This document shows positions 24,387 to 33,691 of a DNA stretch of 64,000 nucleotides, piece after piece. The first letter of the stretch is position 1. Every line of letters starts with the position of its first letter. The notes under the pieces are model-generated. The model was not told where the DNA came from. It made no database searches and saw nothing but the letters and a program-made list of their open reading frames with translations. The stretch lies in NCBI GenBank assembly GCA_026705345.1, contig JAPPAV010000056.1, positions 1-64,000 of the forward strand. The letters run 5' to 3'. A program made the position numbers and the translations under genes. The DNA comes from Gammaproteobacteria bacterium. GTDB lineage: Bacteria > Pseudomonadota > Gammaproteobacteria > Pseudomonadales > Azotimanducaceae.

Positions 24387-25346
24387 TCAGGTTCCGGAGC
24401 GCGCTTGCCGCAGCAGCTCGTCCAACTCCGCGATGCGATGGAGCGCTTGCTCGCGTTCGCGCTTCGATGCCTCAAGCTCGCGGTCGGCTTCGGCAAGTCG
24501 GCGGTCGGCTTCGGCAAGTCGGCGGTCGGCTTCGGCAAGTCGGCGGTCGGATTGCGATAGCTTCCGCTCAGCGTCGTCGAGCATCCTGACCGTGTCCACG
24601 TGGTCGGGGATGACCATCGCATCGCGAGGATCCCGGCACCGCAACTCGCCGTCCAAAACGAGCAAGTCCAATTCCAAGACACGGCTCCTCAAACCACCCT
24701 CGGGCAGCTCTGCAATCTCACGGTAGCTCGCGCCGACCAACTCGAACCCGGCCAAGCGGGGATGCAGCGGATCGAACAGCCAGAACTCCGCAATACCCAA
24801 CGCCTCGTACAACGGCGGCTTGACGTGCACGTCCTTGCGCCAGGTGCTCCGGGAGACGACTTCGATGACGAGGTCCGGCACCTTGCCCTCTTTCCAGGTC
24901 TTGTAGGAATCCCTCGGCTCGTTCCCGACGCCCAGCACGACCATCAGATCGGGTGCCAGGGTGGCCTTCCGGTTGCCTTCCTCGAAGAGCAGCATCAGGT
25001 CGTGCGCAATCAAGTCGTCCTCCCGGTCGCGGAACACGGCGCGCAACGAGTTGAAGGTGTACGCCGACGTGTGCGCGTGCTTGGTGCTCTCGGGCACGTT
25101 GCTGTCCGGACCGGGATAGCCTTCGTCGTCATACTCGACCGGCGGCACCGGTCGGTAGAGCGCTTCGGCATGAATGACGGACAGCGGCAGTTCGGTCGCC
25201 GTTCGCAGGGGCTCGACCCCTGCCACGACGACCGTTTCGCCGGTTCTTGATCTCGGCTTCATCATCGGAAAGTACCACGATTCATCTCTCGGACGTGTCG
25301 AATGCCGAGATTCTCCATTGGGCGGCGTCGGGACCGTTACGGACAT
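24387..25346 (-). CDS. Uma2 family protein with C-terminal coiled coil
   Basis: A 319-residue protein. The middle (LAPDLMVVLG, PDLVIEVVSRST, VKPPLYEALGIAEFWLFDP) is the PD-(D/E)xK nuclease-like core of the Uma2 (DUF820) family, most abundant in cyanobacteria. From about residue 250 it changes into a coiled coil with ADRRLAE repeated three times. The start is uncertain: ATG at 25346 or the internal MMKPRS near 25262. No biological role is established; nuclease activity is inferred from the fold only. Confidence 0.78.
   Translation of the reverse strand: MSVTVPTPPNGESRHSTRPRDESWYFPMMKPRSRTGETVVVAGVEPLRTATELPLSVIHAEALYRPVPPVEYDDEGYPGPDSNVPESTKHAHTSAYTFNSLRAVFRDREDDLIAHDLMLLFEEGNRKATLAPDLMVVLGVGNEPRDSYKTWKEGKVPDLVIEVVSRSTWRKDVHVKPPLYEALGIAEFWLFDPLHPRLAGFELVGASYREIAELPEGGLRSRVLELDLLVLDGELRCRDPRDAMVIPDHVDTVRMLDDAERKLSQSDRRLAEADRRLAEADRRLAEADRELEASKREREQALHRIAELDELLRQARSGT
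24480..24551. repeat. 21-bp tandem repeat in coiled-coil region
   Basis: The unit GGCTTCGGCAAGTCGGCGGTC occurs three times in immediate succession, encoding the heptad ADRRLAE of the Uma2 protein on the minus strand. Units are virtually identical, so the coil length is likely to vary between strains. Confidence 0.85.
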
Positions 25347-25525: not shown

Positions 25526-25568
25526 TTGACGCCCCACTGTATTAGGTGTATTAATTCGACTAGTACAC
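25526..25568 (+). promoter_or_regulatory. promoter and GntR operator of the ABC operon
   Basis: TTGACG (25526-25531), 17-bp spacer, TATTAA (25549-25554): a near-consensus sigma70 promoter. An imperfect palindrome GTGTATTA-N7-TAGTACAC (25546-25568) covers the -10 box and likely transcription start. This resembles operators of YtrA-type GntR repressors, and the first gene of the operon, at 25592, encodes one. Repression by its own product, relieved by an unknown ligand, is the simplest reading. Confidence 0.65.
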
Positions 25569-25591: not shown

Positions 25592-25984
25592 ATGTTCTCG
25601 CTCAACCCCTCGTCGGGCATACCGATCTACCGCCAGATCGTCCAGCAAGCCCGGTTTGCCATCGCCAGCGGGCGCGTCAAACCCGGTGACCGGTTGCCGT
25701 CGGTGCGCGCCATCGCGACGCAACTCGGCGTGAATCCGATGACCGTCTCGAAGGCCTATTCGACATTGCAGCAGGCGGGCGTCGTGGTGCGGCATCCCGG
25801 CATCGGCATGGTGGTTTCCGAGGCCGGCGCGGACCCGGCGAGCGCGATCGACGCGGACGCGCAAGCACTCGTGCAGGTCGCGAAGCAACTGGGCCTGTCA
25901 AGAAAGGAACTGGTCGAACGAATCAACAAGCAATGGGAGGAAGAATGGACCGACCAAACGATCCCCCTGCGCCGCTCGCGCTGA
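25592..25984 (+). CDS. YtrA-type GntR family transcriptional regulator
   Basis: A 130-residue regulator. Winged helix at about 10-72 (RLPSVRAIATQLGVNPMTVS), followed only by a short helical tail for dimerisation, the mark of the YtrA subfamily, which typically represses ABC transporter operons next to it. It is the first gene of a seven-gene operon and overlaps the ATPase gene by 40 bp. A palindrome over its promoter is the likely binding site. Confidence 0.92.
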   Translation: MFSLNPSSGIPIYRQIVQQARFAIASGRVKPGDRLPSVRAIATQLGVNPMTVSKAYSTLQQAGVVVRHPGIGMVVSEAGADPASAIDADAQALVQVAKQLGLSRKELVERINKQWEEEWTDQTIPLRRSR

Positions 25985-26802
25985 GTGGCGTCTCGGCGGG
26001 CTACGAACGGAACGACAAGGACCGCGTCCTCGACGCCGTCGACCTCGAACTGGCACCGGGAACCATCACGGGATTGCTGGGACGCAACGGCAGCGGCAAG
26101 ACGACCCTCATGCGGGTGGCGCTCGGATTGATGCGAGCAAGGACCGGCACCGCCCGACTGTTCGGCGAGAACTCGTGGGACTCCCCCGCCGAGGTACGGA
26201 AGCGTCTGGGCTACGTTGCCCAGCAGTTCGCGAGCTTCGGCTGGATGAAGGTGGACCCCTGCCTCGCCATGATCGGCAGTCATTACGACGACTGGGACCA
26301 CGGCCTTGTCGACGATCTCAAACGCGACTGGCAGTTGGAGAACCGCCGGATCGCCAAGCTGTCGCCCGGCGATCAGCAAAAGGTCGCGATCCTTCTCGCC
26401 GTCGGCCACAAGCCGGATCTGCTTCTGCTCGACGAACCGGCGGCCAGCCTCGACCCCGCCGCCCGGCGCGACTTCCTGAAGGCCATCGTCGAGCTGAACG
26501 CCGACCGTGGCCAAACCGTCCTGCTGTCGAGCCACATCACCAGCGACATCGAGCGCATCGCGTCGCATATCGCGATCCTGCACGGCGGCCGTATCGTCTG
26601 TCACGAGGCCTTGGACGAGATCAAGGACCGGGTGGGTCTCGTGACGCTGACGGAGCCGCCGTGGCCACCGGTCGAAAACGTCCTCGCCTCCCAGGGAAGT
26701 CGACACTGGATCTGGAACCCCGACGAGTGCGGATTGGCAACCAATGTACGGGTCGAGGAGGTCGTGCTCGAAGACCTGTTCGTGGGGATTACAGCTCGAT
26801 GA
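25945..26802 (+). CDS. ABC transporter ATP-binding protein (first)
   Basis: A 285-residue ATPase. Walker A GRNGSGKTT (about 44-52), Q-loop region AQQFASFGWMK, Walker B LLLLDEP, and H-loop SSHITSD. The signature motif is unusual: LSPGDQQK instead of LSGGQ. A C-terminal extension (HWIWNPDECG, NVRVEEVVLEDLF) recurs in the second ATPase of the operon. The ATG at 25945 follows a strong GGGAGGAAG site. The gene ends in an ATGA overlap with the next gene. It probably pairs with the membrane proteins that follow. Confidence 0.93.
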   Translation: MDRPNDPPAPLALSGVSAGYERNDKDRVLDAVDLELAPGTITGLLGRNGSGKTTLMRVALGLMRARTGTARLFGENSWDSPAEVRKRLGYVAQQFASFGWMKVDPCLAMIGSHYDDWDHGLVDDLKRDWQLENRRIAKLSPGDQQKVAILLAVGHKPDLLLLDEPAASLDPAARRDFLKAIVELNADRGQTVLLSSHITSDIERIASHIAILHGGRIVCHEALDEIKDRVGLVTLTEPPWPPVENVLASQGSRHWIWNPDECGLATNVRVEEVVLEDLFVGITAR

Positions 26803-28031
26803 GGTCCGCCGTTGTGCTGCGAGCCGTCCTTGGCCGGTGGTGGCAACTGGTGTGTTTTCTCCCGTTCGTCATCTACGTTGTCGTGCTCGGCGGGCCCGCT
26901 GTCGCCAACGGCATTGCGGTGTGGCTCATGGGCATTGCCGGATGGATTGCAGGGGTGTTCGCCAAGGACCTCGGCAACTGGCCGAATCGGCCCTTGGTTC
27001 CCGGCTACTCGAAGACCCTGTTCCAAATGGTGCTCGTCTGTCTCCTCCTCATTCCCCTCGCTTGCGGATCGCTGTGGACGGCGTTGGGCAACCCGCCGCC
27101 GCCATTCGGGCCCGGTTTGCTTTGGGGAACCATCATGACGCTCTGTGTCGTTCGCACCGCAGTCAGCCCAGCCGTGCTAGCCACGAACCTGGCGGGAATC
27201 ATCGGGCTCGGCTTCTACCTGATCTGGGCGGCGAAACAGGCGATGCACCCGGTGGTGTTCGAGTCGCTGACGGATTGGCGCCTGCAGTTTCCGGCGCTTG
27301 CACTCGCCGCGCTGGCCCTGTTCCACATCTGGCGGAGGCTGAACGCGCCATTGCGGGCGACGACCCGCAACTTCGAGGCCGAGGGGCGGGAACCGCTGTA
27401 CACCAAGCTATACGGACTGATTGCCGGACTGCGCGCCAGGGTCTGGCGAGAGGTCGTGGTGACCTTGCCCCTGGTCGCCCTCGCCCTGCTGCTCGTACTC
27501 CTCGTACGCACCGGCATCACGACGTATCACGTGTGGATCGTCTTTGTGCTCGCATGCCTCGTGTACTCACTCGCCCGGGTGGTGGTCCGTCTGGCCACCA
27601 TCCACGTCCCGCTTCGCTTGCTCTGGCTCTCCGGCGCGGCGGAGACCCGAAGAAGCCTAGGCCGCGAATGTGCTCTGGCGATCCTCATGCTCGGGTTTGG
27701 GTGGCTTCCCGCAGGGCTCGTCGGTGCCGCCATTCTTGCGCTCGGGATGCACCAAGCGGCCCAATTCGACGGCGTGCTCCTGGTCGCTTTCACGACACTG
27801 CTGATGATCGCGTTGTTCGTCGGAACCGGGAGGCGCATTCCGTCCACGAAGGGGTCGTTGCAGTTGCTGGCCGTGGGAGTCTTCTGCGGCGGTTTGACTA
27901 TCACGTTGATTCATGGCATCGAACTAGGTTGGGCGGATCGCTCGGCAATGGTTCTGGTTCTGGCAGGTCTCGCGGTCGCGACCTGGTGGGCCGTGGCCCG
28001 GGCACTGGCCCGGGCGGAGATCGTGCAATGA
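26799..28031 (+). CDS. ABC transporter-associated membrane protein 1
   Basis: A 410-residue protein with roughly 10-12 hydrophobic segments. It carries three motifs shared with the other membrane proteins of the operon: LVPGYSKTLF near 67, GNPPPPFGPGLL near 100, and LRLLWLSGAAETRRSLG near 270. It ends ARAEIVQ. I know no named family with these motifs; by position it is the permease partner of the first ATPase. Start and stop overlap its neighbours by 4 bp each. Confidence 0.85.
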   Translation: MRSAVVLRAVLGRWWQLVCFLPFVIYVVVLGGPAVANGIAVWLMGIAGWIAGVFAKDLGNWPNRPLVPGYSKTLFQMVLVCLLLIPLACGSLWTALGNPPPPFGPGLLWGTIMTLCVVRTAVSPAVLATNLAGIIGLGFYLIWAAKQAMHPVVFESLTDWRLQFPALALAALALFHIWRRLNAPLRATTRNFEAEGREPLYTKLYGLIAGLRARVWREVVVTLPLVALALLLVLLVRTGITTYHVWIVFVLACLVYSLARVVVRLATIHVPLRLLWLSGAAETRRSLGRECALAILMLGFGWLPAGLVGAAILALGMHQAAQFDGVLLVAFTTLLMIALFVGTGRRIPSTKGSLQLLAVGVFCGGLTITLIHGIELGWADRSAMVLVLAGLAVATWWAVARALARAEIVQ

Positions 28032-28906
28032 ACGACGTGCCCGAACAGGTATTGCCCATGGAGGCAGTCCCCTTGTCCATTGCAGGCCTTGGCGCGGGCT
28101 ATGGGCCCGACTCACCCGATGTGCTCCGGGACTTCAGCATCGAACTCCAACCGGGAACCATCACCGGATTGCTTGGCCGTAACGGCAGCGGCAAGACAAC
28201 AGTCATGGAAGTCGTCCTGGGACTGACGTTTGCCGGGCGCGAGGGCTCTGTAACGATGTTCGGCGAGGGCAGCCAGCCGCCCTACTGGCGCAGGGAGGTC
28301 AGCAACCGCGTCGGCTACGTTCCCCAGCGCTTCTCGGGCTTTGGCTGGCTGAAGGTGGACGCTTGCCTCGCTCTCGTCAGCGCCCACTACGACCATTGGG
28401 ACTACGACCTGGCAGACCGCCTTAGGCGGGAATGGCGGCTCCAAAACCGCCGCATCGGTGAACTCCCGCCCGGCGACCGGCAGAAGGTGGCCGTTCTGCT
28501 GGCCATCGGTCACCGACCCGATCTCCTGATGCTCGACGAACCCGTGTCGAGTCTCGACCCGAGCGCCCGACGCGATTTCCTTGCGGCGTTGGTGGAACTG
28601 AACGCCGACCAAGGCCAGACCGTGCTGCTCGCAAGCCACGTTACCAGCGACATCGAACGCCTCGCTACGCACATCGCGATCCTTCATCGGGGGCGGATCG
28701 CCTGCCATGCAGCGCTGGACGAGATCAGGGACCGCCTCGGCGTGGCAACGCTGGACACTCCCCCGCCCTTGCCGCCAGAAAAGACCTTCGCGTCACACGG
28801 CAACCGCTACTGGATTTGGGATCCCCACGACGGCTGTTTGCCGGCCAACGTTCGCATCGAAGGGACCTTGCTTGAAGATCTGTTCTTGGCGGTGACGTCC
28901 AAATGA
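28028..28906 (+). CDS. ABC transporter ATP-binding protein (second)
   Basis: A 292-residue ATPase closely related to the first ATPase of the operon. Walker A GRNGSGKTT, Walker B LLMLDEP, H-loop ASHVTSD; the signature is LPPGDRQK, again far from LSGGQ. The C-terminal block YWIWDPHDGC with NVRIEGTLLEDLF matches that of the first ATPase. The two may form a heterodimer or each serve its own permeases. Confidence 0.93.
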   Translation: MNDVPEQVLPMEAVPLSIAGLGAGYGPDSPDVLRDFSIELQPGTITGLLGRNGSGKTTVMEVVLGLTFAGREGSVTMFGEGSQPPYWRREVSNRVGYVPQRFSGFGWLKVDACLALVSAHYDHWDYDLADRLRREWRLQNRRIGELPPGDRQKVAVLLAIGHRPDLLMLDEPVSSLDPSARRDFLAALVELNADQGQTVLLASHVTSDIERLATHIAILHRGRIACHAALDEIRDRLGVATLDTPPPLPPEKTFASHGNRYWIWDPHDGCLPANVRIEGTLLEDLFLAVTSK

Positions 28907-30129
28907 CAGTCCTGTTGCAACTGCGAGCCTTCGATAGAGCCCTAGGGTGGCTTGCCATTCCTGTCGCGGGCATCTGGGCACTCCCGTGGCTGGCGGCGGA
29001 TACCGTTGCCGCCACGAACTACGCGCTGGCGGCCAGTGTCGCCTGGAGCGGCCTCGTCGCGGGATTCGCGGTACGCCGCATTCACGATTGGCACGGCGCG
29101 ATGCTCGCGCCGCGATTCCGGGGATCGTTGTTCGCCGCCGGCGCAATCCTGATCGGAACGGTCGGTGCGACCGGCCTCGCCTTGTGCGGGTTCGCCGGGA
29201 ACCACATGCCGCTGATCGGTCCGACACTGCTAATTGGCTGCGGAATCTTCTTCGGTCTCGTCGATAGACCGCAGTGGTCCGTGTACCTCGGTCCTTCGTT
29301 CGTCGACCGTTTGAGCCCTTGGGCGTTTGCCGCAGGGGGCGTCCTCGCATTGTTCCGACATCTGGACGGCACGTTCCCGCACGACTGGCCGCAAATCGTC
29401 GAAATCGGCTTCGCTGGAATGGTGCTCGTGTTGGTTCGGCGGGGTCTCAACAGTCCCCGGCAGCCAGCGAATATCCCCGAGGCCGCGTTCTTCAATCGAA
29501 CGCGGTATGGCGGTCGGTGGAACGAGGAAGTCTGGACCGAGGCACAGGCGAGCATCGTCGTCCTGGGGATCATCGTCGCGTTCTGGCTCGTCTTGCCGAC
29601 GGCTTGGCAATCGGCCCTCGCGGTGGGCCTGCTGGGCGGCCTTTGGGCGCTGTTCGCCGCCGCATCGCTTGCCGAAAGCCTTCGGTCGCTACCACTGCGG
29701 CTGAGGTGGAACTGGCTGCTCGCTGGCCCGCGCTCGCGAACGGACGCCGGGCGTCAAGTATCCGTCCGCATCGTCCTGCGCATCGCCACGTCGCTTCCGG
29801 TGGGTGCCGCCGGTGTTCTTCTGCATGCGTCTCAGGACTCCGTCCTGGGAGGCGAGGCGCTGTTGGATGAATTGCTGTTGCTCTATGTCGGACTGCTGGC
29901 GGCAGCATTTGCGGGTATGCGGTTCCAAAGCCTCGAACGGTCTGTGCGCCGGTACTCTGTGCCGTGGATCGCCTTGGGCGGCGTCTCGGGGGCGGGTCTG
30001 GCCGGATTTGCGCCGTTCTCACCCAATGCCCTCGGAATCGCCATTCTCGTCGTCACGCTACTGAGCCTCGCCGCCATGGCGGCGGTTCTCGGCGGTCGGG
30101 ACATGGGCCGGGTGGAGATCGTCGAATGA
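28903..30129 (+). CDS. ABC transporter-associated membrane protein 2
   Basis: A 408-residue polytopic membrane protein with about 10-12 hydrophobic segments. It is the most diverged of the four: LAPRFRGSLF in place of the VPGY motif, GNHMPLIGPTLL in place of GNxxPxxGPGLL, and LRLRWNWLLAGPRSRTDAG for the third motif. The C-terminus GRVEIVE matches the others. 4-bp overlaps on both sides. Confidence 0.83.
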   Translation: MTVLLQLRAFDRALGWLAIPVAGIWALPWLAADTVAATNYALAASVAWSGLVAGFAVRRIHDWHGAMLAPRFRGSLFAAGAILIGTVGATGLALCGFAGNHMPLIGPTLLIGCGIFFGLVDRPQWSVYLGPSFVDRLSPWAFAAGGVLALFRHLDGTFPHDWPQIVEIGFAGMVLVLVRRGLNSPRQPANIPEAAFFNRTRYGGRWNEEVWTEAQASIVVLGIIVAFWLVLPTAWQSALAVGLLGGLWALFAAASLAESLRSLPLRLRWNWLLAGPRSRTDAGRQVSVRIVLRIATSLPVGAAGVLLHASQDSVLGGEALLDELLLLYVGLLAAAFAGMRFQSLERSVRRYSVPWIALGGVSGAGLAGFAPFSPNALGIAILVVTLLSLAAMAAVLGGRDMGRVEIVE

Positions 30130-31433
30130 ACATCCCGATACGGCGTCGCTATCACATTCCGTGGATCAAGACGCTGCAAGCCTTCCAAGTCGAATTTTGG
30201 ACTCTAGGTTGGGTCTGCCTTTTCTGGCTGCCAGTGACGGACATGTGGACCTCGTTCGGAGACTTCGTGCCAAACTCGAACATCGCCTTGCTCTCGATGT
30301 TCGCGTTCGTCGCCGGGCTTGTAGGTAGCCGAGCGCTTCAGTTGCGGCAATGGCCGGTCACTGCCTTGTTACCGGGCTACGCAACGTCGTTGTATTGGGT
30401 CTGCATCTTCTTTCTCGTGGTAGCGGGATCGATCGGCGCTCTGCACTGTTGGCTGGTCGGCAATACCCGACCTGCGCTCGGTCCGGGCCTGCTCGTTGCC
30501 GCGATCATCCTCCACTGCGGAACATCCTTCGGCCGGCAGACCCTCGGCTACGTCGCTGCGGGGTGCTTCTGTTCGATTGTCGCGGCCGGGATCGTGGGCG
30601 ATGGCTTCCTCGCTGCGCTGTCGCTACTTTCCCTTCAGCTCTCCGCTACGCAGATCCAAGTCGTTTCTATCACACTCGCCGCCATCGCCCTCGTGCACTT
30701 CAAGGGGACGCTCAGCAAACCGGCCACACTCCGGGGAGCACCGCGCGATCTCGAGTACTCCGCGGACATGCGGTGGATGCCGGCGGTCTTTCATCGAGAC
30801 CGGCCCTTAGTCGGACCGTCGCTCTCCGATAACGCCTGGCAGGGTCGGCGGCTTGGCAAGGAAGCCATGTTGAGTGCTGTCGCGCTTGCGGTCTCGCTGG
30901 CGCTTTGGGTCGCTCTGCCCTCGCGGCTAGCGCCAGACGAGATGGTGGTTGTTCCCTGGTTGATTGCGATTGCCCTGCAGGCGCCCTTACGTCTGCGAAA
31001 TGTCCATCGCGAACTTTCATTGGCGTGGATCCACGGCACCGCGCCGTCACGAGCCAAGTTGGGCCATAGTTCCATCGTTCAAATCGCCGTTCTTGGAATA
31101 CCGTGGCTGGCGGTGGGATTGGCTGGTACGACGGTGCACTGGCAGCACGGCGCCGGAGAGGCTACGTTCTTCGAAGAACTGATGGTCGTCCAGACCGGCA
31201 CGCTTGGCGCGATTGCTTTGCAGTGTCGTACACGCCTGCTACCCGCAGCCTCGAACCTTCTATTCCTTTCGACCGCATGCGTCGCCATCGTTGTCTGCGC
31301 CCTGCTGAAACCAGCAACAGTCGAGTTCAGCTTCGTCGGGTTTGCCGCTTTGGCGATCGCGTTGGCGTGTGCGGTCGCGACGTTGTTGATCGTCGGCGGT
31401 CGCGGCCTTGCGCGGGCGGAGATCGTGCAATGA
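30126..31433 (+). CDS. ABC transporter-associated membrane protein 3
   Basis: A 435-residue polytopic membrane protein. It carries LLPGYATSLY near 80, GNTRPALGPGLL near 115, LSLAWIHGTAPSRAKLG near 295, ATFFEELMVVQT near 345 and the C-terminus ARAEIVQ. Compared with proteins 1 and 2 it has a longer middle loop (about 200-245). 4-bp overlaps with both neighbours. Confidence 0.83.
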   Translation: MNIPIRRRYHIPWIKTLQAFQVEFWTLGWVCLFWLPVTDMWTSFGDFVPNSNIALLSMFAFVAGLVGSRALQLRQWPVTALLPGYATSLYWVCIFFLVVAGSIGALHCWLVGNTRPALGPGLLVAAIILHCGTSFGRQTLGYVAAGCFCSIVAAGIVGDGFLAALSLLSLQLSATQIQVVSITLAAIALVHFKGTLSKPATLRGAPRDLEYSADMRWMPAVFHRDRPLVGPSLSDNAWQGRRLGKEAMLSAVALAVSLALWVALPSRLAPDEMVVVPWLIAIALQAPLRLRNVHRELSLAWIHGTAPSRAKLGHSSIVQIAVLGIPWLAVGLAGTTVHWQHGAGEATFFEELMVVQTGTLGAIALQCRTRLLPAASNLLFLSTACVAIVVCALLKPATVEFSFVGFAALAIALACAVATLLIVGGRGLARAEIVQ

Positions 31434-32665
31434 ACGGTGCGCTTGATCGGTGGTGTGCCGGAACGATGCGGGCTCTGGGGGCGCTGCGATCTCTCTGGAT
31501 CGACGTGTGGACGACGCTCGTTTTTGTGGTGGCTTGGCTGGTGGTGGATCTTGTGAACCCGGCGTTCGCCGCCAGCAACGCGATGATGCTCATGACCCTC
31601 ACATTGTTCGGATGGCTAGTCGGAAGCCGGGTTGGGGCATTGCGACTTTGGCCGGGGACGGTTCTCGTGCCCGGCTACACCCGATCATTGTTCGTGGTTT
31701 GCCTAGGCGCGACGTGCTTGGCCGTGGCATTGGCGGCACTGTGGTCATGGTCGCTCGGCAACAGCATCCCAGCGGTCGGACCCGGGCTCTTCCTCGGTGT
31801 TGCCGTCACGTGGGCCGCGATTCGCCTGCCGTTTCATGTCTATTGGCCCATTGCTCTTCCCTTGACCTTCGTATTGGCAACCGCTCTCGATCTGTCGCGT
31901 CCCTGGTTACAGCTACTGTCCCTGTTGGGCGTCGGTCTGATTGCTCCCGGGATTAAGCGCTCGCTCGACCTCCCCACAACCCGGAGCGGCCACCCGAAAC
32001 AACAGTTCGCGATGACCCTCACACTCGTGCGGGACCTCCAGACCGGCGTGGCGTTCATGGTGGGTACCCTTGCCGTCGTCGTACCCTTGTGGGTGATGTT
32101 CCCAAGCATGGGTGAGCGGCTGTTCGCGGGGCTTTGGTTCTGTTCACTCGGCGTCGCGATTCTCAGTTGGTGGATGGACGCGGCGCATGTACAACTGGCA
32201 CATGATTGGACCCTCGCGCTCGCGAAAGACCGGAGACACCTGGGCCGTCGAGCCGCCGCACGGGCAGTTTGGATTTCCGTTCCGTGGGTGGTTGTCGGCA
32301 CCGGTTGGTCCATCCTCCACGCATTCACGAAAGCTCCGAACGAGGCGACGTTCTTCGCCGATGTGCTGGCCGTGCAAACCGTGGCCATCCTGTGCATCGC
32401 GTTGCTTTTTCGCCTCTCCCGAGGCTGCCCTCCAGCCCTTCCCCACCGGTTGTTGGTCGGAATCCTGATGCTGGGGTCCGGTGCGGCCGCAACAACCGCC
32501 CTCACACACATCGACTACACCACGTGGGGTTACGGGGCTTTGCTCATCGCGTTAGCCGGGAGTGTGGTCGTGGCGGTACTCGCGGGCGGCCGCGCGATGG
32601 TCAATTCGGAAGTCCTCGCGGACGCTCCGGGTGCAGGAGGTCTAGGCGTCCAGGGGGCGAAGTAG
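31430..32665 (+). CDS. ABC transporter-associated membrane protein 4
   Basis: A 411-residue polytopic membrane protein and the last gene of the operon. Motifs: LVPGYTRSLF near 78, GNSIPAVGPGLF near 110, LAHDWTLALAKDRRHLG near 255, and ATFFADVLAVQT near 305, the last shared with protein 3. The C-terminal motif has decayed to VNSEVLA and is followed by a glycine-rich tail. Its end overlaps the convergent LLM gene by 24 bp. Confidence 0.83.
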   Translation: MNGALDRWCAGTMRALGALRSLWIDVWTTLVFVVAWLVVDLVNPAFAASNAMMLMTLTLFGWLVGSRVGALRLWPGTVLVPGYTRSLFVVCLGATCLAVALAALWSWSLGNSIPAVGPGLFLGVAVTWAAIRLPFHVYWPIALPLTFVLATALDLSRPWLQLLSLLGVGLIAPGIKRSLDLPTTRSGHPKQQFAMTLTLVRDLQTGVAFMVGTLAVVVPLWVMFPSMGERLFAGLWFCSLGVAILSWWMDAAHVQLAHDWTLALAKDRRHLGRRAAARAVWISVPWVVVGTGWSILHAFTKAPNEATFFADVLAVQTVAILCIALLFRLSRGCPPALPHRLLVGILMLGSGAAATTALTHIDYTTWGYGALLIALAGSVVVAVLAGGRAMVNSEVLADAPGAGGLGVQGAK

Positions 32666-33691
32666 GTCTATCGCACGTCCAAGCGTGTCCAACCGCGCTT
32701 GGACATCGCGCCCCGCCGGTGCCAGCCGCACTGTCGTCACACCCGCGTCCCGGTAGGCTCGCAGTCGGTCGCGAACCTCCGCTTCGCTGCCGATCAGGTT
32801 CGCCTGCAGAACCATCTCGGTGGGGATGACCGCTGCCGCCTGGTCGCGCCTGCCCGCCACCCAGAGCGCTTGGGATTCCCGGGCGACGGCGTCCCAGCCG
32901 CCGCGCTTGAAGGCGTCGTTGTAGAAGTTGGTGCGCGCCGACCCCATGGCGCCCAGGGTGAACGCGAGGCCCGCCTTCATGGGTTCGGCCAGCGCTTCGG
33001 CATCACCGAAGGCCACCGTGCCGCCCACCTGGATGTCGATATCGGCCAAGCTGCGACCCGCGGCTTGTGCACCGGCGCGAATCGGGTCGAGGTGGGCATC
33101 GGCGTGTTCCGGTGTGAACGAAGTGCCAAGCCAGCCGTCCGCGGCCTCGCCCGTGTAGCGAAGCGCGTTGGGACCGAGCGTCGCGAGATAGATCGGGATG
33201 CGGTCGTTGCCGGGTTGGGCGAGGCGCAGGGCCTTGCCTTCGCCGCCAGGCAGCGGCAGTTGGTGGTGGCGTCCCTGGTAGGCGATGCGTTCGCCCGCGA
33301 AGGCGAGCTTGACGATGTCGACGGTCTCGCGCATGCGGGTCAGCGGCGCCTTGAACGGTCTCCCCTGCAAGCCTTCCACGACCTGCGGGCCGCTGGCACC
33401 GAGGCCGAGAATGAACCGGTCACCCGAGATCGACGCCATGGTGAGCGCCGTCATCGCCGTCATGCTGGGCGTGCGGGCGCTGATCTGCATGATGCCGGTA
33501 CCCAGACGGATGCGTTCGGTACGGGCCGCGAGGTAGGCGAGCGGTGCGATGGCGTCCTGGCCCCACGCCTCGGCGGACCAGACGGTGTCGGCCCCGAGCC
33601 TTTCCGCCTCGACGACGAACTCGACGTTGTCCTGGAAATTGTCACGGCGACCACCCGAAGCGGCACCGCCGATGCCGATGCTTACCTTCAC
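32642..33691 (-). CDS. LLM class (luciferase-like) flavin oxidoreductase
   Basis: A 349-residue TIM-barrel flavoprotein of the luciferase-like monooxygenase family, using F420 or FMN. Visible are AERLGADTVWSAEAWGQDA, a TERIRLGTGI strand, FILGLGASGPQVVEG and IPIYLATLGPNALR, all standard family blocks. The substrate is unknown. It follows the nucleotidyltransferase-like pair on the same strand (its ATG overlaps the end of the preceding gene by 4 bp). Confidence 0.9.
   Translation of the reverse strand: MKVSIGIGGAASGGRRDNFQDNVEFVVEAERLGADTVWSAEAWGQDAIAPLAYLAARTERIRLGTGIMQISARTPSMTAMTALTMASISGDRFILGLGASGPQVVEGLQGRPFKAPLTRMRETVDIVKLAFAGERIAYQGRHHQLPLPGGEGKALRLAQPGNDRIPIYLATLGPNALRYTGEAADGWLGTSFTPEHADAHLDPIRAGAQAAGRSLADIDIQVGGTVAFGDAEALAEPMKAGLAFTLGAMGSARTNFYNDAFKRGGWDAVARESQALWVAGRRDQAAAVIPTEMVLQANLIGSEAEVRDRLRAYRDAGVTTVRLAPAGRDVQARLDTLGRAIDLLRPLDA

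What the first reader, a model, noticed from the sequence alone, without database searches (positions are those of the whole stretch)
25592..32665. Seven-gene operon: YtrA-type regulator, two ABC ATPases and four paralogous membrane proteins
All seven genes overlap or abut (ATGA overlaps at 26799, 28028, 28903, 30126 and 31430). The four membrane proteins are clearly related: LVPGYSKTLF / LAPRFRGSLF / LLPGYATSLY / LVPGYTRSLF, then GNPPPPFGPGLL / GNHMPLIGPTLL / GNTRPALGPGLL / GNSIPAVGPGLF, and a shared (R/N)xEIV(Q/E)-like tail. YtrA-type regulators usually sit with transporters answering to cell-wall-active compounds, but a set of four permease paralogs with two ATPases is not an arrangement that I can name. 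A possible function is export of, or resistance to, an antimicrobial lipid or peptide.
Basis: partly seen in the sequence, partly recalled or inferred. Interest (0 to 1): 0.78.

Follow-up and report, generated by a model that had tools for sequence, protein, structure and literature searches.

The report
Four alternative pump bodies, shared motors
An uncultured bacterium carries one operon in which a single switch gene and two ATPase motors are joined to four related but very different membrane pump bodies, and related species hold cut-down remains of the same set, which suggests a changeable defence kit against peptide antibiotics.

Summary
Seven same-strand genes (R-A1-M1-A2-M2-M3-M4, 25592-32665) overlap. 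R is a small YtrA-type GntR protein. A1 and A2 are 60% identical, complete ABC ATPases. M1-M4 are homologous membrane proteins that no Pfam or NCBIfam model covers. M4 is predicted to have 12 helices; its best structural matches are the one-chain permease Rv1217c and, for the C-terminal half, CcmB. So each M is probably a whole permease. An operator-like inverted repeat, unique in the genome, covers the likely -10 box. Sister R-A-M loci in the genus sit beside class IIb-type bacteriocin peptides (6 of 7 peptide hits in 16 genomes) and/or a C39-type exporter; the window operon has neither. The array is older than the species: three congeners keep deletion scars of it at the same site, gene ends carry 43-nt repeats, and one deletion junction lies in or just past such a repeat. 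M4 is far more divergent between congeners than R, A1 and flanks. Best reading: a YtrA-repressed orphan immunity/resistance ABC system in which shared ATPases serve four alternative permeases. Substrate and function are untested. The layout resembles pmtRABCD plus two permeases. New variant of a known kind.

The parts
25526..25554 (+). likely sigma-70-type promoter: TTGACG, 17 bp, TATTAA
   Evidence: Read by eye. TTGACG-17-TATTAA is unchanged in 5 of 7 loci listed (window, L058, L059, L061, L062); L072 has TATTGA at the same spacing; L060 has 18 bp. The mechanical scan found no promoter here; it demands a T at the end of the second hexamer.
25546..25568 (.). operator-like inverted repeat GTGTATTA-N7-TAGTACAC over the -10 box, presumed YtrA-type binding site
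   Evidence: Only match to TGTATTAN{2,9}TANTACA in the whole own genome. 3 matches at up to 3 mismatches in the window against 0.01 expected, two of them this site on both strands. A similar strict pattern stands upstream of 12 of 27 R genes examined.
25592..25984 (+). R: YtrA-type GntR regulator, 130 aa
   Evidence: Pfam GntR E 4e-19; PmtR model E 1.2e-15 and Rv1152 model E 1.2e-18, both below cut-off; small size.
25933..26802 (+). A1: ABC ATPase, 289 aa (start may be 25945)
   Evidence: ABC_tran E 4e-23; Walker A, LSPGD signature, DE Walker B and H-loop present by reading; best NCBIfam model PmtA, below cut-off.
26799..28031 (+). M1: membrane protein, 410 aa, permease
   Evidence: Homologous to M2-M4; no Pfam/NCBIfam family over cut-off; groups with the G138 permease (100/100).
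28028..28906 (+). A2: ABC ATPase, 292 aa, second copy
   Evidence: 60% identical to A1; catalytic motifs present by reading; branches outside A1 plus G006 plus G138.
28903..30129 (+). M2: membrane protein, 408 aa, permease
   Evidence: longest branch of the four (2.14).
30126..31433 (+). M3: membrane protein, 435 aa, permease
31430..32665 (+). M4: membrane protein, 411 aa, permease
27991..28033 (+). seam repeat 1: end of M1 / start of A2
   Evidence: 43-nt direct repeat family D3, 72% to the reference copy.
30089..30131 (+). seam repeat 2: end of M2 / start of M3
   Evidence: reference copy.
31393..31435 (+). seam repeat 3: end of M3 / start of M4
   Evidence: 79% to the reference copy; the G435 deletion junction passes from seam-1 to M4 sequence in or just past this stretch.

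Best explanation
A stand-alone, self-repressed ABC export system that protects the cell from peptide bacteriocins (orphan immunity or resistance). R sits on an operator over its own -10 box and blocks the operon until the peptide, or the membrane stress it causes, releases it. Each M is a complete 12-helix permease. A pair of ATPases (A1, A2 or both) docks on its two cytoplasmic loops (the W..xLVPGY..SLF loop between helices 2 and 3 and the W..G.A.SR..LGR loop between helices 8 and 9) and drives removal of a hydrophobic peptide from the membrane. The operon therefore makes four alternative pumps on shared motors, probably with different specificities. The four permeases descend from old duplications and have been pruned or swapped, partly through repeats at gene ends. 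Shown: gene content, homology, operator-like repeat, scars, uneven divergence, predicted fold. Inferred: docking, substrate, induction, function.
Confidence: 0.47

Rival explanations
1. Pmt-like exporter of the cell's own amphipathic peptides or of another own product: the operon secretes rather than protects, and the extra permeases widen the range of products.
For: Same leading order R-A-M-A-M as pmtRABCD and overlapping genes with a dedicated YtrA-type repressor; PmtR has pmt as its only target (PMC5080381), as the unique operator-like site here suggests. Among NCBIfam models PmtA is the best for A1, and PmtR is third for R.
Against: No candidate peptide found nearby. In most sister loci a separate C39-type exporter is present for export. 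The permeases show no match to ABC-2 Pfam models.
Confidence: 0.2
2. Signalling or envelope-stress module of the YtrBCDEF/ClnRAB kind: the transporter senses a cell-envelope-active compound or remodels the envelope and confers no resistance itself.
For: ClnRAB: induced by LL-37, acts on global expression, no resistance (PMC6117091). YtrBCDEF overexpression thickens peptidoglycan (PMC7828314).
Against: A single operator-like site in the genome argues against a wide regulon. Four diversified permeases are hard to explain by one sensing task. Bacteriocin context of sister loci.
Confidence: 0.16
3. The four M proteins are subunits of one large complex with both ATPases, not four alternative permeases.
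For: The genes after A1 are joined by ATGA overlaps, and two ATPases could make an asymmetric motor.
Against: Relatives keep an intact R-A-M with a single full M, of M1 type (G138) or M4 type (G006, G060). M4 has two halves of six helices, like the one-chain permease Rv1217c.
Confidence: 0.08
4. A drifting tandem array: duplicated permeases under weak constraint that are being lost, with little present function beyond R-A1-M4 or R-A1-M1.
For: Deletion scars in G060, G433, G435 and relics in OX638346 and G062; the full set is intact in 1 of 12 genomes of the family that have any such permease. M2 departs from two nearly invariant sites (Y83, L271 of M4).
Against: All seven window genes are open and keep most of the nearly invariant residues; the permease lineages predate the species (monophyly AU p 6e-7), a long time to stay open by chance.
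Confidence: 0.09

Closest known systems
Staphylococcus pmtRABCD (phenol-soluble modulin exporter, PMC5080381)
   Same: YtrA-type repressor first, then ATPase, membrane protein, ATPase, membrane protein, overlapping genes, one promoter suggested, dedicated repressor.
   Different: Two more membrane genes here. A1 and R score far below the PmtA and PmtR cut-offs. M proteins show no match to ABC-2 Pfam models. No modulin-like peptide known here.
Clostridioides clnRAB (PMC6117091)
   Same: YtrA-subfamily regulator, ATPase, permease: the R-A-M unit of most relatives here.
   Different: One permease; induced by LL-37 without giving resistance.
Bacillus ytrGABCDEF (PMC7828314)
   Same: YtrA regulator, two ATPases, more than one membrane protein.
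   Different: Two transmembrane proteins plus a solute-binding protein; YtrA has a second target operon.
Mycobacterial efflux pump Rv1217c-Rv1218c (PDB 8k1m-8k1p)
   Same: Best structural match of M4 over most of its length, and best bacterial solved relative of A1.
   Different: Sequence identity 12-14% in the aligned part; a longer permease (509-530 residues in the entries).
Mr10EFGH enterocin immunity ABC transporter (PMC10598978)
   Same: Bacteriocin immunity by an ABC transporter in which one component follows the bacteriocin and the others follow the species; orphan copies exist.
   Different: Enterococcal, other components; no array of paralogous permeases in the abstract and section 7, the parts that I read.
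Vibrio cholerae T6SS orphan immunity arrays (PMC5361080)
   Same: Arrays of diversified immunity genes shaped by recombination.
   Different: Immunity to T6SS effectors, not a transporter (abstract and outline read only).

Membership tests
YtrA subfamily of GntR regulators | N-terminal GntR helix-turn-helix and very small size with one further helical region | tested here: met
   130 aa, GntR E 4.1e-19 at residues 13-75; its solved relatives include GntR proteins of 113-134 aa; definition from PMC5080381.
YtrA subfamily of GntR regulators | autoregulation of an ABC transporter operon | tested here: inconclusive
   Operator-like repeat over the -10 box, unique in the genome; binding not tested.
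pmtRABCD | order R-A-M-A-M with two ATPases and two membrane proteins | tested here: not met
   First five genes fit; two further M genes.
pmtRABCD | NCBIfam equivalog cut-offs PmtA 350, PmtR 200 bits | tested here: not met
   145.9 (A1), 110.7 (A2) and 57.6 (R) bits.
pmtRABCD | exports amphipathic peptides that also release the repressor | not testable with these tools
   Needs bench work.
YtrBCDEF | two ATPases, two transmembrane proteins, one solute-binding protein | tested here: not met
   Four membrane proteins of one family; none of them matches a solute-binding family in Pfam.
ABC transporter with one-chain 12-helix permease (Rv1217c-Rv1218c type) | permease of 12 helices in one chain | tested here: met
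   12 membrane-length helices in the M4 model; hydropathy of the alignment gives a similar number for M1-M4. Prediction only.
ABC transporter with one-chain 12-helix permease (Rv1217c-Rv1218c type) | same fold as Rv1217c | tested here: inconclusive
ABC transporter with one-chain 12-helix permease (Rv1217c-Rv1218c type) | two ATPase chains on one permease | not testable with these tools
   Inferred from the fold and from R-A-M loci with one A and one M.
Bacteriocin immunity ABC transporter | linked to a bacteriocin structural gene | tested here: not met
   None in the window by pattern scan and no TIGR03949 hit on contig C88. Met by 6 of 8 sister type-2 loci of the genus.
Bacteriocin immunity ABC transporter | confers resistance to the peptide | not testable with these tools
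   Needs bench work.

The most novel reading that the evidence does not exclude
A permease cassette array: one regulator and a shared ATPase pair are fixed at a chromosomal site, while whole 12-helix permease genes, bounded by 43-nt seam repeats that carry the stop/start overlap, are lost and exchanged between related bacteria, so that each lineage carries its own set of pump bodies against the peptide bacteriocins of its neighbours. It would be a transporter version of an orphan immunity array.
Probability: 0.35. Interest if true: 0.78.

Novelty: new variant of a known kind. Interest (0 to 1): 0.57.

Why it matters
If true, the specificity of an ABC resistance system would be stored as a set of interchangeable permeases on common motors, and could be read from the array. 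It would also give a function to a permease family that Pfam and NCBIfam do not cover, tie it to class IIb-type bacteriocin loci in uncultured Gammaproteobacteria, and offer a natural series (one or four permeases with closely related ATPases) for testing how an ABC motor recognises different permeases.

Tried and rejected
Standard YtrBCDEF or pmtABCD: rejected as membership, see tests. Species-specific tandem expansion: rejected, monophyly of M1-M4 of G000 has AU p 6e-7. A1/A2 duplication after the split from G006 and G138: disfavoured, AU p 0.028 for the one grouping tested, which was named after the tree had been seen; A2 is a long branch. Internal duplication of the two halves of M by profile comparison: not seen (hhalign probability 0.8%); the fold suggests it but sequence does not show it. 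Known family of M: none over cut-off in Pfam or NCBIfam; no convincing relative in solved structures by sequence (best E 0.049, potassium-channel segments, taken as chance). Permeases of the Pirellulaceae, Victivallales and Planctomycetaceae records (L067-L069) as relatives: not shown (hhalign probability 1.5%), although their R and A are related. Anti-phage defence: PADLOC hits are to ATPases of several unrelated systems, taken as generic. First operator pattern had a wrong spacing (6 instead of 7) and found nothing; corrected. Promoter and terminator scans were no better than shuffles. Other multi-permease arrays: none in 206 family genomes beyond the own one; G060 and G435 have two matches each, a remnant plus M4 and two pieces of one gene. 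None in the 368 other genomes drawn from the class, some of them drawn before. Those calls scored at most 8 and 4 candidates a genome. Foldseek proper against PDB never ran; the aligner's look at Foldseek's own ranking did. PmtCD was not among the 50 rows shown there; no conclusion drawn.

Counting notes: one search covered 150 of the family with M3 alone and found 5; with the profile covered 206. Trees: one search used 20 A rows and 18 M rows; one search dropped two long A rows. The structure alignment (A3) held 10 rows: it left out the frameshifted G435 gene and the type-2 permeases; the genus g8 permeases were found later. The 14 rows of the conservation count include the G435 pieces. Fisher tests used counts rebuilt from rounded percentages.
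Full report
WHAT IS THERE. The seven genes exist as described: R 25592-25984, A1 25933-26802, M1 26799-28031, A2 28028-28906, M2 28903-30129, M3 30126-31433, M4 31430-32665. All junctions after A1 are ATGA overlaps. M1-M4 are homologous (blastp E 7e-4 to 1.7e-25; z 7.3-16 against shuffles, reversed controls at most 2.1). A1 and A2 are 60% identical and by reading both keep Walker A, a LSPGD/LPPGD signature, the catalytic DE and the H-loop, so both look active. The upstream gene (24387-25346) and the downstream gene (32642-33691) lie on the other strand, so R to M4 is likely one unit.

CONTROL REGION. TTGACG-17-TATTAA (25526-25554) precedes R, and the inverted repeat GTGTATTA-N7-TAGTACAC (25546-25568) covers the -10 element. 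It is the only match to TGTATTAN{2,9}TANTACA in the 5.07-Mb genome. The promoter is unchanged in 5 of 7 loci compared, and a strict form of the repeat stands before 12 of 27 R genes examined; several others have variants by eye. The simplest reading is a dedicated autorepressor; that is inference.

RELATIVES. A profile of M finds members in 12 of 206 genomes of the family and, beyond the own genome, in none of 368 others drawn from the class. The own genome has four, all here. The genome-contig scan with the ATPase kept the best 80 of 236 confirmed loci; those at 60% identity or more are window-type (L058-L066, and the fragment L072). Contig lengths and positions identify G433 with COS4_bin_45, G435 with RHO3_bin_63, G060 with RHO1_bin_53, G138 with SB0670_bin_10, G006 with RHO1_bin_43, G145 with COS4_bin_44, G434 with COS1_bin_18. 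The titles say Gammaproteobacteria; that such bins come from marine sponges is my recollection, not from a call. One relative is in a Candidatus Binatia record (ATPase 65% identical, order M-R-A).

SISTER LOCI AND FUNCTION. Eight type-2 loci (ATPase E below 1e-110 to the one at G000:C106, itself included) exist in the 16 genomes of the genus. TIGR03949 (class IIb bacteriocin, lactobin A/cerein 7B) gives 7 hits in those genomes, 5 over the cut-off. Six of the 7, and all 5 over the cut-off, lie within 0.6 kb of a type-2 R or A gene and are divergent from it; the seventh (G145:C25, 19.1 bits, inside a 289-aa frame) does not. Fourteen control genomes gave none. Downstream of R-A, six of the eight loci (L044, L046, L052, L053, L054, L055) show an ORF with the same LPVVR.xEASEC.LAC stretch near its start, by reading; Pfam and NCBIfam confirmed C39 peptidase and ABC domains, and HlyD next to it, in L054 only. 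L045 and L050 have the peptide and no such ORF in the stretch read. So each of the eight has a peptide hit, a C39-type exporter, or both. Type-2 permeases are homologous to M1-M4 by profile (seven type-2 rows; probability 97.9%, E 5.5e-13, 348 columns); by single-sequence tblastn only L044 gave a weak hit (E 5e-4). L052 showed no open permease frame in the stretch read. With a separate exporter present, the natural role of R-A-M there is immunity. The window operon lacks both partners as far as searched, so it would be an orphan.

HISTORY OF THE ARRAY. At the same chromosomal site G060 keeps R and A1 (91% DNA identity), then pieces of A2, M2, M2/M3 and M3, in that order, and an open M4. G433 keeps R, A1 and the first 56 residues of M1 joined in frame to A2 residue 77, up to the contig end (coverage 5.8 in the record title, so an assembly error is possible). 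G435 keeps R, A1, the last part of M1 and the first codons of A2 joined to an M4-like gene that is now in two frames. G138 has R-A-M1 only. OX638346 has R, 77 residues of A and the end of M4. The ancestor of these congeners therefore had A1, M1, A2, M2, M3 and M4. Trees agree: M4 with G006, G060 and G435 (99/99), M1 with G138 (100/100), A2 outside A1 plus G006 plus G138 (without two long rows). A single clade of the four window M genes is rejected (AU p 6e-7), and A2 with only the genus A1 rows is disfavoured (p 0.028). Retained open units have one A and one full M, which says that one of each can be enough.

SEAMS AND EXCHANGE. The ends of M1, M2 and M3 with the next start codons form a 43-nt direct repeat (27991, 30089, 31393; 72 and 79% to the reference copy). 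The G435 junction passes from M1-end/A2-start sequence into M4 in or just past this stretch. The scars of G060 and G433 are not at seams. Divergence is uneven: between G000 and G060, four-fold sites differ by 18% in R, 22% in A1, 30% in the upstream amidohydrolase and 37% in the downstream gene, 32% in the M3 remnant, but by 63% in M4 (Fisher A1 against M4 2.6e-11); in G138 R differs by 17% and A by 53% (5.8e-7), with DNA identity dropping from 84-94% in R to 72-86% past the R/A boundary. In single-permease loci A and M keep step (19% and 22% in G000b-G111b; 34% and 38% in G145-G434). Exchange of genes, or sorting of old paralogues, explains this better than protein rate alone, since silent sites are affected too.

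VERDICT. Real, ordered, and not an arrangement that I found in print (searches; mostly listings; the library lacks most subscription journals). It works most likely like a bacteriocin-immunity ABC exporter with four alternative permeases. That is a new variant of a known kind.

PAPERS. PMC5080381, PMC6117091 and PMC7828314: passages found by term. PMC10598978: abstract, outline and section 7. PMC5361080: abstract, start of the introduction, outline. All others: search listings only.

Noticed in passing
L054:7872-8054 and L055:8170-8400 (G138 and G111); G000:C106:44626, G000:C73:18451: Double-glycine-leader peptides of the class IIb bacteriocin family in uncultured Gammaproteobacteria, divergent from an R-A-M unit and often with C39-type ABC and HlyD-type genes: candidate bacteriocin loci.
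   Followed up: partly
L054:4596-5141: A DUF2857 protein (E 3e-32) between the permease and the HlyD gene of a bacteriocin-type locus; similar ORFs in L052, L053, L055, L056 by reading. No obvious role there.
   Followed up: no
L066 (COS4_bin_45, 8271-base contig): A second window-type ATPase followed by a permease in more than one frame; probably the G433:C528 match that one search lists with one stop inside: another decaying unit.
   Followed up: no
L063:6388-8843: A Candidatus Binatia record carries the same family in the order M-R-A; a possible transfer between phyla.
   Followed up: partly
window:24387-25346: Upstream gene on the other strand ends in a run of RRLAEAD-type repeats (coiled-coil-like tail).
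   Followed up: no
L057:1276-2142 (G366): Long run of a repeated IIY tripeptide in an open frame beside a distant R-A-M locus, probably a simple DNA repeat.
   Followed up: no
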